In this document: in pieces, positions 2,923 to 22,690 of the stretch
How the letters are laid out: the number at the start of each line of letters is the position of its first letter
Position numbering within the stretch: the first letter of the stretch is position 1
Source of the DNA: Bacteroidia bacterium
GTDB lineage: Bacteria; Bacteroidota; Bacteroidia; Chitinophagales; UBA2359
Reading direction: 5' to 3'
DNA length: 50,545 bases
Assembly: GCA_030427245.1 (NCBI GenBank)
Contig: JAUHXA010000054.1
Span: 1-50,545 of the forward strand
Program-made: the position numbers and the translations under genes
Notes under the pieces: model-generated
Databases searched by the model: none
The model's input: the letters and a program-made list of their open reading frames with translations, nothing else
Told to the model about the DNA's origin: nothing

Positions 2923-3722
2923 TACCCCAAGTTACCCCCAATGATAGCATAAATATTTTGGGGCTGCCAATTTCTTTTCCTTCCCAATCTCATTCGTTTT
3001 TCTATTCGGAATTCATTGAAGTTATTTTGCCTCATAAACGCTCTTGCACTTAAATTGTCACTGGGAAAGGAAGCAAAATCTTTGGATTGCAAGCGCAACT
3101 TCGTTAGTTCTATTCCTGCTAAACTTGTAGTAGCTATTATCAAACCATGTCCTAAACTCGGCAAATAGAAACCTTTCACCTCATTGTCCTGTAAATACAA
3201 AAAGCCGTTTGAAAGGTGTTCTTCAAGAAGCAAAATCCTGTTTTCGGCTGAAACTTGTCTGTCTAAATCCAAAACTTGTTTTTTGAAGTCACTGTTAAAC
3301 TCCACAATATTCTCGGAACCTTCAAATGTGTTGTTTGCTCCTTCACACCTAAAAATTAAATACTCTGTTTCTATTTCAAAACCCATCTTTTTATACACAG
3401 GCTCACCCAGTTCGGTTGCCAAAAGATTGATTGTTTCACAGCCTTTGGAATAGGAGGTTTCCACTAAAGTTTGGGTGATTGCTTTTCCGATACCTTGATT
3501 TCTATAGTCAGAATGAACAATAATATGAGCCAACCAAGCAGTATCGTGGTGAATGATTGTTGCCCCAATACCCACTATTTTTTCGTCCATACACACTTTA
3601 ATCGGAAAGCAAAAACTTGTGTTGGTATAAAAGGCAATAATCGGAATAGCATCTTCCCAACCAAATGGAAGCAAGTCTGAGATAAAAGGTATGTCGCTAT
3701 GTTCTAAATTCTGTATGTCCAT
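2922..3722 (-). CDS. GNAT family N-acetyltransferase, 266 aa
   Basis: The N-terminal half is a GNAT fold: a strand-rich start, then IVGIGATIIHHDTAWLAHIIV and the acetyl-CoA-binding motif DYRNQGIGKAIT (Q/R-x-x-G-x-G/A) near residues 95-105, and VYKKMGFEIETEY as the closing motif. About 120 further residues follow, arranged like the second, usually degenerate, GNAT-type half of double-domain family members. It transfers an acyl group from acyl-CoA to an unidentified amine. The first ATG (3722) gives a typical start just before the fold. Its stop overlaps the cupin start by one base. Dna-E-tail copy B begins 25 bp upstream. Confidence 0.85.
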   Translation of the reverse strand: MDIQNLEHSDIPFISDLLPFGWEDAIPIIAFYTNTSFCFPIKVCMDEKIVGIGATIIHHDTAWLAHIIVHSDYRNQGIGKAITQTLVETSYSKGCETINLLATELGEPVYKKMGFEIETEYLIFRCEGANNTFEGSENIVEFNSDFKKQVLDLDRQVSAENRILLLEEHLSNGFLYLQDNEVKGFYLPSLGHGLIIATTSLAGIELTKLRLQSKDFASFPSDNLSARAFMRQNNFNEFRIEKRMRLGRKRNWQPQNIYAIIGGNLG

Positions 3723-18196: not shown

Positions 18197-18733
18197 ATGA
18201 ACAACAACATCGAACATCGCCTGCTTCAATTAGAAAACCAACTTCAATGGTACAAAAAATGCACTTTTATTGGTGCAATTCTTTTGATTGGATTTTTCCT
18301 GATCAGTGCCAATCATTTGAAGTCAGACGAAGTAACACCCAAAATCAAAGCCAAAAGCATAGATTTGGTCAATGACGATGGCAAAACCATGCTGTCATTG
18401 AGAGCATTGCCGCACTCAGGGAGTTTGTTGGTTTACAACAGTGCTGGTCAAGAAATGCTTTCTTTAAGTGCAGACAGCAACGAAAAAGGTGGCCTGTTGG
18501 AGATTCAAAACAAAGAGGCAAGCAACAAAGTACAGATTCGTTCTAATATGAAAAGTGGAGCAATTAAGATTTTTAATGATGCCGATGAAAGTATGGTTTT
18601 CATCAGTGAAGACCCTTCAACGAGCAAATCAGGCTACATCAACTTATCCAACAAAATCATCTTGGAAGCCACAAAAAGCAAGATTTATGTGGCGGATGAA
18701 GAAAAAGAAGGTAGCTATGTGGAGTTGCCGTAA
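18197..18733 (+). CDS. Membrane-anchored protein with beta-rich repeats, 178 aa
   Basis: Start at ATG 18197 (MNNNIEHRLLQLENQLQWYK), giving a short coiled coil, then a transmembrane anchor (CTFIGAILLIGFFLISA). The exposed part consists of short strand repeats such as KSIDLVNDDGKTMLSLRAL, LLVYNSAGQEMLSLSAD and AIKIFNDADESMVFIS. These resemble the GIxVYNxxGKxV repeats of stacked beta proteins. It ends SKIYVADEEKEGSYVELP. A fragment of a close relative of this tail lies at 22616-22690, so a second copy once existed nearby. Function unknown. Confidence 0.65.
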   Translation: MNNNIEHRLLQLENQLQWYKKCTFIGAILLIGFFLISANHLKSDEVTPKIKAKSIDLVNDDGKTMLSLRALPHSGSLLVYNSAGQEMLSLSADSNEKGGLLEIQNKEASNKVQIRSNMKSGAIKIFNDADESMVFISEDPSTSKSGYINLSNKIILEATKSKIYVADEEKEGSYVELP

Positions 18734-18782
18734 GTGCTTTGCTTTGTTGAGTCCTTATTTTGATACACAGATATTGACAGAG

Positions 18783-19118
18783 ATGTTTTTGGCAGAATAC
18801 TTTGATGAAACCATCGAAAGAATCCCTATGCCAATAGTGAATTCCAGTGCTAAAAGGGCATTTTCCACCAATGTTCCACTTTTTAAAATCTATCCCAATC
18901 CCACAGATGATTATTTTACCATTGATTTGAATGGAACAGGTATCGACAAAGACACCAGGTTGGATATACTGAATATGAATGGTCAAATTTTATCTTCTGC
19001 TGAAATAGACCATTTAGAAGTAATCTCTACAAGCGATTTAGAATCGGGAATTTATTTTATTCGACTGCATATAAATGGAAAATTGATTAAATCCGATAAA
19101 TTGGTCATTATCAGATAA
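18783..19118 (+). pseudogene. Orphan T9SS C-terminal sorting tail (tail type A)
   Basis: From the ATG at 18783 the frame encodes about 30 residues of unrecognised sequence and then a type IX secretion tail: IYPNPTDDYFTIDLNG ... LDILNMNGQILSSAE ... SDLESGIYFIRLHINGK ... KLVIIR. There is no signal peptide and no cargo domain, so it cannot function as a secreted protein. The tail is nearly the same as the one on the gene at 19194-20708, exactly 1,590 bp downstream. It is best read as the remains of a T9SS gene whose body was lost and whose tail took part in the tandem duplication. Confidence 0.7.
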
Positions 19119-19132
19119 ACCTTTTTAAACAA

Positions 19133-19173
19133 ATCCCTACGCCTTTTCGCAAGTCATAGGGGTTTCTCTTTTT
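19133..19173 (+). terminator. Imperfect terminator hairpin after the orphan tail
   Basis: A 13-bp stem with two mismatches (19133-19145 with 19151-19163) around TTCGC, followed by a T-rich run. It is the degenerate counterpart of the terminator at 20722-20763 in the second unit. Confidence 0.55.
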
Positions 19174-19193
19174 ACTTCTTAGCTTAAAATACA

Positions 19194-20708
19194 ATGCAAA
19201 AAACAATACTTTTATTCTTTCTGCTATTGATTTCACCAATAGTTTGTTCACAGGATTTTAATTATTTTTTCAAAACCATATCGAATGATTCAGTGAATCT
19301 TTTTTCTTTTGCAAGTTTACCTATTGAGGATGGTTATTTTGTGGTAGGTCCTTATACTACCAATACCCAGAGTGGAATTTATCTTCAAAAACTCGATGAA
19401 GACGGCAATTCTGATTGGGCGATAAAATTGGACGAACAATCCGTTGATAATCCTCCTTCTATGAATACAGGTAGTCTATTGATTCCCTTTGGAGACAATT
19501 TTTTATTGGCTTACAATAAACGAACAGAAAACAACAGTACAGATATAGGAATGATTCAATTTGATAGCGAGGGAGAGATTTTATGGCAAACTAAATATGG
19601 AGATGAACGAAAACAAAATCCACATATACTGTTGGGAACGAAAGACGGTGGGTTTATTGTAGGAGGGTATGAAAGTTATGTTTCTGGCATCACTCCTTTT
19701 CAGTATTGGACGATGTATGTGGTCAAAGCAGATAGCTTGGGCAATCAGCAATGGGAACAACGCTATACCTTAGATGAAGGCAATAGCAGCTTGACTGTGG
19801 ACATCATCGAAACCTTGGATGGAGGCTATTTATTGGGTGGATATGGACATTTGGAAGAGGACTTTGCTGGAGCCTACCAACAAGAGGCTTATGTCGTCAA
19901 AATAGATAGTTTGGGCAGTGCTGAATGGGAAAGAAATTATGGCACACTTGAATGGGATGATAGTGGGGTTAATGTTTATCAATATCCCGATAGCACCTAT
20001 CTTTTGTATGGCTCTGAGGGCGCGAGAGAAAGTATGTTTAACTATTTGATGTTTCGACATATTGACCAAGAGGGAAATACTTTGGAGGAAAATACTTATG
20101 AAGAATGGTATACTACTGGTACATGGAGGTTGTTTCCTTTAGAAGATGGCGGTTTTTTGGGATTTGCCAATCATCGCCTCAAAAAAAATGCCCCTGTACG
20201 CCCTCGTATGATGCGGTTTACCCCTTATTGTCGAGATACTTTGTGGACGAAAGTCATTGATTACCTACCAGAAGAAGAAAATTTAGGTATTCGAGATGTC
20301 GACCAAACCAATGATGGCGGTTTTATCATCACGGGTTTTCGTTCTTCTCCTTTTCCTCAATTCGGTTGGGTGTTGAAAGTCGACAGTCTCGGCAATGGTT
20401 GTTTGGAGTTTGGTTGTGACAGCAGCACGATTACCCACATTGAAGAAATTCCCCAATCTGAACAAAAACGGTTTTCTCTTTATCCCAATCCTACGAATGA
20501 TTATTTTACCATTGACCTAAATGGAATAGATGCTGACGAAGATACAAGATTGGATATACTGAATATGAGTGGTCAGGTTTTATCTTCTGCTAAGATAGAC
20601 CATTTGGAGGTGATTTCTACAAGCGATTTAGAATCGGGAATTTATTTTATTCGACTGCATATAAATGGAAAATTGATTGAATCCGATAAATTGGTCATCA
20701 TTCGATAG
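19194..20708 (+). CDS. Secreted T9SS type A sorting-domain protein (copy 1), 504 aa
   Basis: A signal peptide MQKTILLFFLLLISPIVCSQ is followed by about 390 residues of beta-propeller-like repeats with the recurring pattern DGGFIVGGYESY ... VKADSLGNQQWEQ, DGGYLLGGYG ... VKIDSLGSAEWER and DGGFIITGF ... LKVDSLGNGC. The C-terminus is a T9SS tail (LYPNPTNDYFTIDLNG to KLVIIR, tail A), which directs export across the outer membrane and surface anchoring. The nucleotide sequence is identical to copy 2 for most of its length; the two proteins differ in the tail. The identical 5' leader implies shared regulation. Function beyond surface display is unknown. Confidence 0.88.
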   Translation: MQKTILLFFLLLISPIVCSQDFNYFFKTISNDSVNLFSFASLPIEDGYFVVGPYTTNTQSGIYLQKLDEDGNSDWAIKLDEQSVDNPPSMNTGSLLIPFGDNFLLAYNKRTENNSTDIGMIQFDSEGEILWQTKYGDERKQNPHILLGTKDGGFIVGGYESYVSGITPFQYWTMYVVKADSLGNQQWEQRYTLDEGNSSLTVDIIETLDGGYLLGGYGHLEEDFAGAYQQEAYVVKIDSLGSAEWERNYGTLEWDDSGVNVYQYPDSTYLLYGSEGARESMFNYLMFRHIDQEGNTLEENTYEEWYTTGTWRLFPLEDGGFLGFANHRLKKNAPVRPRMMRFTPYCRDTLWTKVIDYLPEEENLGIRDVDQTNDGGFIITGFRSSPFPQFGWVLKVDSLGNGCLEFGCDSSTITHIEEIPQSEQKRFSLYPNPTNDYFTIDLNGIDADEDTRLDILNMSGQVLSSAKIDHLEVISTSDLESGIYFIRLHINGKLIESDKLVIIR

Positions 20709-20721
20709 ATCCTTAATAATC

Positions 20722-20763
20722 ATCCCTATGACTTTATCACAAGTCATAGGGATTTTTCTTTTT
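20722..20763 (+). terminator. Intrinsic terminator after T9SS copy 1
   Basis: ATCCCTATGACTT (20722-20734) pairs perfectly with AAGTCATAGGGAT (20741-20753) around TATCAC and is followed by TTTTCTTTTT. It lies just after the copy 1 stop and before copy 2, so the two copies are probably separate transcripts. Confidence 0.85.
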
Positions 20764-20783
20764 ACTTCTTAGCTTAAAATACA

Positions 20784-22370
20784 ATGCAAAAAACAATACT
20801 TTTATTCTTTCTGCTATTGATTTCACCAATAGTTTGTTCACAGGATTTTAATTATTTTTTCAAAACCATATCGAATGATTCAGTGAATCTTTTTTCTTTT
20901 GCAAGTTTACCTATTGAGGATGGTTATTTTGTGGTAGGTCCTTATACTACCAATACCCAGAGTGGAATTTATCTTCAAAAACTCGATGAAGACGGCAATT
21001 CTGATTGGGCGATAAAATTGGACGAACAATCCGTTGATAATCCTCCTTCTATGAATACAGGTAGTCTATTGATTCCCTTTGGAGACAATTTTTTATTGGC
21101 TTACAATAAACGAACAGAAAACAACAGTACAGATATAGGAATGATTCAATTTGATAGCGAGGGAGAGATTTTATGGCAAACTAAATATGGAGATGAACGA
21201 AAACAAAATCCACATATACTGTTGGGAACGAAAGACGGTGGGTTTATTGTAGGAGGGTATGAAAGTTATGTTTCTGGCATCACTCCTTTTCAGTATTGGA
21301 CGATGTATGTGGTCAAAGCAGATAGCTTGGGCAATCAGCAATGGGAACAACGCTATACCTTAGATGAAGGCAATAGCAGCTTGACTGTGGACATCATCGA
21401 AACCTTGGATGGAGGCTATTTATTGGGTGGATATGGACATTTGGAAGAGGACTTTGCTGGAGCCTACCAACAAGAGGCTTATGTCGTCAAAATAGATAGT
21501 TTGGGCAGTGCTGAATGGGAAAGAAATTATGGCACACTTGAATGGGATGATAGTGGGGTTAATGTTTATCAATATCCCGATAGCACCTATCTTTTGTATG
21601 GCTCTGAGGGCGCGAGAGAAAGTATGTTTAACTATTTGATGTTTCGACATATTGACCAAGAGGGAAATACTTTGGAGGAAAATACTTATGAAGAATGGTA
21701 TACTACTGGTACATGGAGGTTGTTTCCTTTAGAAGATGGCGGTTTTTTGGGATTTGCCAATCATCGCCTCAAAAAAAATGCCCCTGTACGCCCTCGTATG
21801 ATGCGGTTTACCCCTTATTGTCGAGATACTTTGTGGACGAAAGTCATTGATTACCTACCAGAAGAAGAAAATTTAGGTATTCGAGATGTCGATCAAACGA
21901 ATGATGGCGGTTTTATCATCACGGGTTTTCGCACTTCTCCTTTTCCTCAATTCGGTTGGGTGCTCAAAGTCGATAGCCTCGGCAACGGCTGTTTTGAGTT
22001 TGGTTGTGACAGTAGCACGATTACCCACATTGAAGAAATTCCCCAATCTGAACAAAAACGGTTTTCTCTTTATCCCAATCCTACACAAGGAGAAGTGACG
22101 GTTCAGTTTTATTCCCTCTTTGAAGGGAGCGAAGGGGATGTTCGAGAGGCATTGAAGAGCTTGTCCCGAAGTATCGGGAAATCGGAGTTGGTGGTGCGGG
22201 ATGTTGCGGGGCGAGTTTTGAAGAAAAAAAACCTGTCAGATTTAGACTACAAAAGTTTTGAAAACTTTTGTAGTCTTAGCACATCGGACTTGGAAGCAGG
22301 CATTTACTTTGTGCATTGGCAAACAAGCGAAGGAAAGAGTTTGGGAGTGGAGAAGTTGGTGGTGTATTGA
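20784..22370 (+). CDS. Secreted T9SS type A sorting-domain protein (copy 2), 528 aa
   Basis: Same signal peptide and repeat body as copy 1, with scattered synonymous and conservative changes only near residues 365-410 (FRTSPF for FRSSPF, GCFEF for GCLEF). After LYPNPT the tail is unrelated: QGEVTVQFYSLFEGSEGD ... ELVVRDVAGRVLKKKNLSD ... SDLEAGIYFVHWQTSEGK ... KLVVY (tail B). It is still a valid T9SS tail, so the two copies share cargo but carry different sorting domains. Part of the tail B coding sequence contains a short palindromic stretch (CAAAAGTTTTGAAAACTTTTG around 22250). Copy 2 probably represents the ancestral gene with its own tail. Confidence 0.88.
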   Translation: MQKTILLFFLLLISPIVCSQDFNYFFKTISNDSVNLFSFASLPIEDGYFVVGPYTTNTQSGIYLQKLDEDGNSDWAIKLDEQSVDNPPSMNTGSLLIPFGDNFLLAYNKRTENNSTDIGMIQFDSEGEILWQTKYGDERKQNPHILLGTKDGGFIVGGYESYVSGITPFQYWTMYVVKADSLGNQQWEQRYTLDEGNSSLTVDIIETLDGGYLLGGYGHLEEDFAGAYQQEAYVVKIDSLGSAEWERNYGTLEWDDSGVNVYQYPDSTYLLYGSEGARESMFNYLMFRHIDQEGNTLEENTYEEWYTTGTWRLFPLEDGGFLGFANHRLKKNAPVRPRMMRFTPYCRDTLWTKVIDYLPEEENLGIRDVDQTNDGGFIITGFRTSPFPQFGWVLKVDSLGNGCFEFGCDSSTITHIEEIPQSEQKRFSLYPNPTQGEVTVQFYSLFEGSEGDVREALKSLSRSIGKSELVVRDVAGRVLKKKNLSDLDYKSFENFCSLSTSDLEAGIYFVHWQTSEGKSLGVEKLVVY

Positions 22371-22429
22371 GATTGTGACATTGATTTAAGAACTGTTGTT
22401 GAAACGAAACTTGCCAACAATTTCCAATT

Positions 22430-22488
22430 TTGGCAACAGTTGAGTGGGTAGGTCAACTGTTGGCAAAGCCTGCTCCGAGAACTCGGAG
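22430..22488. repeat. Two adjacent hairpins of a palindromic dispersed repeat
   Basis: TTGGCAACAGTTGA (22430-22443) pairs with TCAACTGTTGGCAA (22453-22466) with one mismatch. Next comes CTCCGAG-AA-CTCGGAG (22473-22488), a perfect hairpin. GTTGGCAAAG and GTTGACAAAG flank the latter. The 22371-22524 stretch separates two copies of the tail B end and looks like an inserted repeat element. Confidence 0.6.
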
Positions 22489-22524
22489 GTCTCCAACCGT
22501 TGACAAAGTTTCCCTGTTCCAATC

Positions 22525-22584
22525 ATGCATTGGCAAACAAACGAAGGGAAAAGTTTGGGGGTGGAGAAGTTGGTGGTGTATTAA
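22525..22584 (+). pseudogene. 60-bp second copy of the tail B 3' end
   Basis: 22525-22584 matches 22311-22370 (the last 20 codons of T9SS copy 2) at nearly every base and ends in a stop at the same place. No gene body is attached. It is a relic of another T9SS gene or of a local duplication. Confidence 0.75.
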
Positions 22585-22615: not shown

Positions 22616-22690
22616 TATTTTAAAAGTCAAAAAAGTGAAATATATGTGGTGAATGAAGAAAAAGACGGTATTTTTGTAAATAACGCTATT
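22616..22690 (+). pseudogene. 3' fragment of a relative of the 18197-18733 gene
   Basis: The stretch reads KSEIYVVNEEKDGIFVNN, matching the end of the 18197-18733 protein (KSKIYVADEEKEGSYVELP). No start or upstream part is present. TATTTTTG at 22669-22676 inside it may serve as the -7 box for the acyltransferase gene beginning at 22716. Confidence 0.55.

What the first reader, a model, noticed from the sequence alone, without database searches (positions are those of the whole stretch)
18890..22370. T9SS gene duplication with sorting-tail exchange at the YPNP codons
Two 1,590-bp units have identical cargo bodies but the proteins end in unrelated T9SS tails. Unit borders fall in TATCCCAATCC, the coding sequence of the conserved YPNP motif, present at all three junctions. 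This shows a simple way to swap export tails: short homology in the motif itself acts as a recombination point. Near-identity of the bodies but not of the tails suggests recent gene conversion.
Basis: seen in the sequence. Interest (0 to 1): 0.62.

Follow-up and report, generated by a model that had tools for sequence, protein, structure and literature searches.

The report
Export-tail swap in duplicated secretion gene
A bacterium has two neighbouring copies of one secreted-protein gene that carry different export tails, joined at the short DNA word coding for the tail's first motif, and a related bacterium carries one such tail on many dissimilar genes, so these tails may move between genes as units.

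Summary
Two units 1,590 bp apart carry the same beta-propeller-like cargo with different type A T9SS tails; TATCCCAATCC stands at all three junctions (18891, 20481, 22071). Corrections: the bodies are identical over 1,136 bp (19167-20302), then 12 of 121 bp differ (2 of 429 residues). The tails are distant members of one domain family.

Best reading, two events. (1) An old tandem duplication, its crossover confined to about 14 bp over the YPNP codons, joined body B to an upstream neighbour's tail. Tail C is native: a paralogue runs through YPNP into a related tail. Tail and 3' body show similar synonymous divergence (0.51, 0.46). (2) A later conversion made the 1,136 bp identical.

Generality is mixed. 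Among 264 tails, 3 of 8 well-preserved tail-only pairs border at YPNP; five begin 37-50 bp upstream. But a genome of the same family carries one 225-bp tail at 10 places; in 28 pairs without detectable body similarity, homology starts within 9 nt of YPNP in 26 and ends within 7 nt of the stop codon in 26. Shared tails have a precedent (Tannerella KLIKK proteases, origin left open).

The parts
18734..18890 (+). remnant of gene X: 3' end of the body, open in the frame of tail A1 but without a credible gene start
   Evidence: frame open from 18555, overlapping the upstream 199-aa ORF in another frame
18891..19118 (+). tail A1 with stop codon (orphan type A T9SS tail of gene X)
18891..18901 (+). 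junction motif 1, TATCCCAATCC (YPNP codons)
19194..20480 (+). B1: body, 429 aa, modelled as beta-propeller
19167..20302 (+). identical tract, copy 1 (1,136 bp; begins 27 bp before the ATG)
20303..20423 (+). diverged 3' body of B1: 12 of 121 differ from B2
20481..20708 (+). tail A2 of B1 with stop codon (acquired tail), 29 of 228 differ from A1
20481..20491 (+). junction motif 2, TATCCCAATCC; the crossover lies within about 14 bp here
20784..22070 (+). B2: body, 429 aa, 2 residues differ from B1
20757..21892 (+). identical tract, copy 2
22071..22370 (+). tail C of B2 with stop codon (native tail, 99 aa)
22071..22081 (+). junction motif 3, TATCCCAATCC
22164..22179 (+). hairpin-like word TCCCGAAGTATCGGGA inside tail C, 3 exact places in the genome
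22249..22271 (+). palindromic dispersed repeat inside tail C, 10 places in the genome with up to 2 mismatches, 5 of them exact

Best explanation
Two neighbouring T9SS cargo genes, X (tail A) and B (tail C), underwent a tandem duplication in which the crossover fell inside the YPNP codons that open both tails. The unit tail A + intergenic + body B was copied, giving X-tailA, B1-tailA and B2-tailC: a whole, in-frame chimera in which the same cargo carries a second type A tail. Later a gene conversion homogenised 1,136 bp of the two genes. Shown: anatomy, position of the join, native status of tail C, similar age of tail and 3' body. Inferred: the crossover mechanism, its dependence on the short homology, and that both proteins are exported, perhaps to different fates.
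For: B1 equals B2 up to 13 nt past the first base of YPNP and is unrelated after; B1 is 88% identical to X's tail from the first base of YPNP and unrelated before. The C97 paralogue aligns with B2 through YPNP into tail C and again at its 3' end. dS 0.51 for tail A1/A2 and 0.46 for the 3' body, 0 of 1,136 differences in the tract. Tail A was found as DNA only at these two places in the genome. Of 7 strong tail-sharing pairs that I listed in this genome, 6 lie within 5 kb, against 32 of 11,325 pairs overall, which fits local events. Independent support for YPNP as a border: the 10-copy tail family in G001.
Against: Eleven identical bases is little for RecA-type recombination (general knowledge), and 514 of 5,565 pairs of tails with a recognised motif share as much there. 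The four other high-identity tail-only pairs in this genome begin 37-47 bp upstream. The 71-bp identical patch 20424-20494 is not explained, though only weakly improbable (P at most 0.04). No close relative without the duplication was found, so the ancestral order is reconstructed, not seen.
Confidence: 0.72

Rival explanations
1. B was duplicated whole with tail C, and tail C of B1 was afterwards overwritten by conversion from the tail of X, as a cassette from YPNP to beyond the stop codon.
For: G001 shows tails shared with borders at YPNP and stop, in most pairs without flanking homology, so tail-only transfer seems possible.
Against: What follows B1 resembles what follows tail A1 (29 of 48 intergenic positions, then identity), so the unit copied includes the intergenic stretch. 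One duplication explains this in one step.
Confidence: 0.15
2. The bodies are identical because the duplication is recent, and the 454-bp junction block (20303-20756) was imported from a diverged strain.
For: The divergent part of the middle is one contiguous block.
Against: Needs an import that happens to carry the same chimeric join, so the join must be older anyway; conversion within the array is simpler (reasoning).
Confidence: 0.08
3. Assembly artefact.
For: Draft genome of 187 contigs; an exact 1,136-bp repeat is hard for short reads (general knowledge; the sequencing method is not known to me).
Against: The junction block differs from both parents at 10-13% in coding sequence, which a spurious copy would not. 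No N in the contig. Copy number could still be higher than two: any number of junction-plus-body units would fit the same assembly graph (reasoning).
Confidence: 0.03

Closest known systems
KLIKK proteases of Tannerella forsythia (Ksiazek 2015, PMC4404884; abstract and passages seen)
   Same: Six proteases of more than one family share a virtually identical T9SS tail; the authors suggest a relatively recent common origin and fusion, and say that its origin needs further research.
   Different: In the passages seen no join position and no exchange event was described. Here one join is mapped to the YPNP codons, and in a relative both borders (YPNP and stop) are mapped.
Domain rearrangement and allelic exchange in Porphyromonas gingivalis surface proteins (Dashper 2017, PMC5266723; outline, abstract and passages seen)
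   Same: Recombination makes mosaics of surface proteins that include T9SS cargos.
   Different: The passages seen concern catalytic and adhesin domains and exchange between strains, not exchange of the sorting tail within one genome.
Engineered T9SS tail swaps in Flavobacterium johnsoniae (Paillat 2025, PMC12618676; passages seen)
   Same: The tail dictates destination after export; type A tails give surface anchoring or release depending on the tail.
   Different: Made in the laboratory, between type A and type B tails; here the swap is natural and between two type A tails.

Membership tests
Type A T9SS sorting domain (PF18962, TIGR04183) | Profile match at the C terminus | tested here: met
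   All three tails pass the PF18962 cut-off (52.5, 55.1, 38.4 bits against 27). TIGR04183 is passed by A1 and A2 but not by tail C (20.9 bits against 23).
Type A T9SS sorting domain (PF18962, TIGR04183) | Relatedness to solved T9SS tails | tested here: met
   The profile of B2 and relatives matches 8glj_D (Por secretion system C-terminal sorting domain) and 8qb1_A (Mirolase) over the tail.
Type A T9SS sorting domain (PF18962, TIGR04183) | Export of the protein by a T9SS | not testable with these tools
   Needs an experiment; the secretion machinery itself was not searched for.
Tandem duplication with crossover at short homology | Direct repeats at unit borders and a hybrid join | tested here: met
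   11 identical bases at all three borders and a chimeric B1.
Tandem duplication with crossover at short homology | An unduplicated ancestor in a relative | tested here: inconclusive
   No close relative held: matches in 16 of 39 other genomes, 27-36% identical; a genome scan with B2 alone found none, one with an alignment found 38 loci at 21-33%.
Gene conversion between tandem copies | A sharply bounded identical tract between older diverged flanks | tested here: met
   1,136 bp without difference between flanks at 10% and 40%.
Shared T9SS tail on dissimilar proteins (KLIKK-like) | Near-identical tail on proteins whose bodies are not alike | tested here: met
   G001: 10 tails 76.6-93.2% identical in DNA; 28 of 45 pairs have no body similarity at blastp E 1e-3. 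These tails are less alike than the published KLIKK tails. In the window, X and B1, where the body of X is only a remnant.

The most novel reading that the evidence does not exclude
In some Bacteroidota the type A T9SS tail behaves as an exchangeable DNA cassette bounded by the YPNP codons and the stop codon; it moves between cargo genes of different kinds by short recombination, so that tails evolve in concert across a genome and cargos can be readdressed in one step.
Probability: 0.33. Interest if true: 0.7.

Novelty: new variant of a known kind. Interest (0 to 1): 0.5.

Why it matters
T9SS tails decide export and destination, and dissimilar secreted proteases of one species share near-identical tails whose origin was left open in 2015 (PMC4404884, passages). 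A mapped tail exchange, and a relative where one tail sits on many genes with borders at YPNP and stop, turn that into a testable question: do tails spread as cassettes, and does the shared motif place the join? B1 and B2 are also a natural pair, one cargo with two tails, for testing whether two type A tails send the same protein to different fates.

Tried and rejected
YPNP as the general breakpoint in this genome: rejected, since apart from the window's own pair the high-identity tail-only pairs there start at -37, -45, -47 and -47; the third pair of the C88 trio, which also shows body similarity, starts at -78.

Ordinary whole-gene duplication as the explanation: seen elsewhere (four near-identical copies with their tails in G009), not here. 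A second survey in named genomes (71 tails in 38 loci, partly the same contigs as before) gave no tail-only pair by the same criterion.

Special length of the homology at the join: not supported, 514 of 5,565 pairs share 11 or more bases. The 71-bp patch before the join as a separate conversion: not convincing (P at most 0.04 by itself). Three tails were followed as DNA queries: the G001 tail gave 10 places, the C88 tail 3 (all in C88), the G024 tail 2; only the first is a dispersed family. G001 was followed because one of its pairs bordered at YPNP, so it is not a random pick.

Limits of the survey: own tails were capped at 150 of 384 candidates; I added the window's tail C by hand. In 44 of 151 own tails no YPNP-like word was recognised and the profile start served as zero; one search left these out, and B1 too. 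In the relatives only tails with such a word and of 55 to 110 aa were kept. Of the 20 tail-only pairs, 12 were below 73% identity and are not in the count of 8; their borders run from -71 to +70, six of them between -8 and +5. On check I found that my first grouping of the G001 bodies into five types by eye was too generous: by blastp they fall into three groups; the odds of the novel case were lowered from 0.35 to 0.33 for that.

Full report
What is there. The window is contig C145, 1-50545, of a 7.58-Mb draft genome of 187 contigs. Between a 199-aa ORF without a Pfam match and a gene matching wax ester synthase/DGAT lie an orphan T9SS tail (A1, 18891-19118) and two T9SS cargo genes, B1 (19194-20708, 504 aa) and B2 (20784-22370, 528 aa). 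All three tails match PF18962; tail C of B2 falls short of the TIGR04183 cut-off, 20.9 against 23 bits. The body is modelled as a beta-strand-rich, propeller-like domain (mean pLDDT 79.7 and 81.0 with 20 aligned sequences); the best matches by sequence and by fold are the CylK structures (TM-scores 0.45-0.57, so a loose match). The tail part of the profile matches solved T9SS tails 8glj and 8qb1.

The repeat. Against a shift of 1,590, the stretch 18891-20494 has 60 differences in 1,604 positions, unevenly spread: tail 29 of 228, intergenic 19 of 48, then none in 1,136 (19167-20302), 12 of 121, none of 71 up to and just past the YPNP codons, and then unrelated sequence. TATCCCAATCC stands at 18891, 20481 and 22071. 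The bodies differ at 2 of 429 residues.

Where the join is. B1 and B2 agree until 13 nt after the first base of YPNP. B1 and X agree, at 88%, from the first base of YPNP on, and not before. So the join in B1 is confined from both sides to about 14 bp. The nearest paralogue, on contig C97, aligns with B2 straight through YPNP into tail C and again at the tail's 3' end, so tail C is native to the body and B1 is the hybrid. Tail A was found as DNA nowhere else in the genome.

Order of events. Synonymous divergence is 0.51 for tail A1/A2 and 0.46 for the 3' body 20303-20423 (75 and 41 codons): about one age. The 1,136-bp tract without a difference (log10 P at most about -31.5) is then best read as a later conversion. 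It starts 27 bp before the ATG and ends 178 bp before YPNP, so it is not the event that made the join. The block 20303-20756 differs from both parents, which no assembly duplication would produce; but any number of junction-plus-body units could be hidden in the draft (reasoning).

Is YPNP a general join? I collected 151 tails of this genome and 113 of nine unnamed relatives. Within genomes 169 pairs had same-register DNA similarity; 20 were tail-only (at least 100 nt of tail, left border within 150 nt of YPNP), and 8 of these had 73% identity or more. Their left borders, from the first base of YPNP, are 0 (window), 0 (G001), -2 (G024), -37, -45, -47, -47 and -50: 3 of 8 at the motif. The two at -47 come from one trio of genes. 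A further case in G024 borders at -4 but also shares its 5' flank and some body similarity. The linker before YPNP may simply evolve faster, so the cases under 80% are not clean; the window and G001 are. In this genome the other high-identity cases speak against YPNP as the rule. Of 7 strong tail-sharing pairs that I listed, 6 are neighbours within 5 kb, against 32 of 11,325 pairs overall. TATCCCAATCC occurs 33 times in the genome, its backward-read control 3 times.

The relative. Searching G001 with one of its tails as DNA gave 10 places on 9 contigs. Pairwise tail identity is 76.6-93.2%. By blastp at E 1e-3 the bodies held fall into three groups without detectable similarity: one of eight members linked by partly very weak matches (by eye a PKD-like set of five, two propellers of the family of B, and one other; the PKD name is recalled, not tested), and two single ones. 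Five of the ten bodies are held in part or are short (69 to 276 aa, or 159 and 150), so some similarity may be missed. In the 28 pairs of 45 without body similarity, homology begins within 9 nt of YPNP in 26 (the others at -19 and -29) and ends at 222-232 in 26 (the stop codon ends at 225; the others at 238 and 325). Tails are as alike between pairs without body similarity (83.1%, 28 pairs) as between pairs with it (82.6%, 17 pairs). The nearest tail sits on a body without detectable similarity for 4 of 10 tails, and for a further three on a body only 23-26% similar. Fourfold sites differ at 194 of 705 in the 28 pairs, short of saturation in my judgement, so selection on the protein alone does not explain the likeness. 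Tails there seem to spread or be homogenised across different genes as a unit from YPNP to stop.

What it does. That tails are sufficient for export, and that type A tails lead to anchoring or release depending on the tail, is published (PMC12618676, passages; PMC10202324, passages). B1 and B2 therefore look like one cargo with two addresses, which is inference. Tail C is 99 aa long against 75 for tail A and carries two hairpin-like or palindromic words also found elsewhere in the genome; the model of that part is weak (block means 57 and 51 at 441-460). The swap may have given the cargo a cleaner tail: speculation.

What is known. Shared tails on proteases are known from Tannerella forsythia, with the origin left open (PMC4404884, abstract and passages; the lead was recalled, then searched). 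Full-text searches for T9SS with domain shuffling, gene conversion, paralogues and duplication, YPNP, rgpA/rgpB conversion, modularity and concerted evolution listed no paper that by title and start of abstract treats tail exchange at the motif. One search listed 20 of 110 papers; only open-licence papers are held, so this is weak evidence of absence.

Noticed in passing
G001 loci L305-L314: A dispersed 225-bp T9SS tail in 10 places on bodies of at least three groups without detectable similarity, sharp at YPNP and at the stop codon.
   Followed up: yes
22164-22179 and 22249-22271: Two hairpin-like or palindromic words, at 3 and 10 places in the genome, lie inside the coding sequence of tail C and may have lengthened it.
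   Followed up: partly
22371-22525: Cluster of short dispersed repeats (31 matches in the genome, the query itself included) between tail C and a second copy of its last 57 bp.
   Followed up: partly
22526-22582: A 93% copy of the last 57 bp before the stop of tail C (22312-22368), a possible trace of a further lost unit.
   Followed up: no
22630-22677: A 79% copy of a stretch at the 3' end of the 199-aa ORF (18673-18720), so this stretch flanks the array on both sides.
   Followed up: no
L160 (C88:73678-79239): Three neighbouring T9SS genes with tails about 90% identical in DNA but bodies only 28-44% identical in protein.
   Followed up: partly
L219 (G024), tails at 3674 and 4827: Two neighbouring genes share 5' flank and tail at 77-81% in DNA, while the bodies are only about 31% alike in protein over 159 aa.
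   Followed up: partly
L082 (G009): Tandem array of four near-identical cargo genes including their tails, 1,533 bp apart.
   Followed up: no
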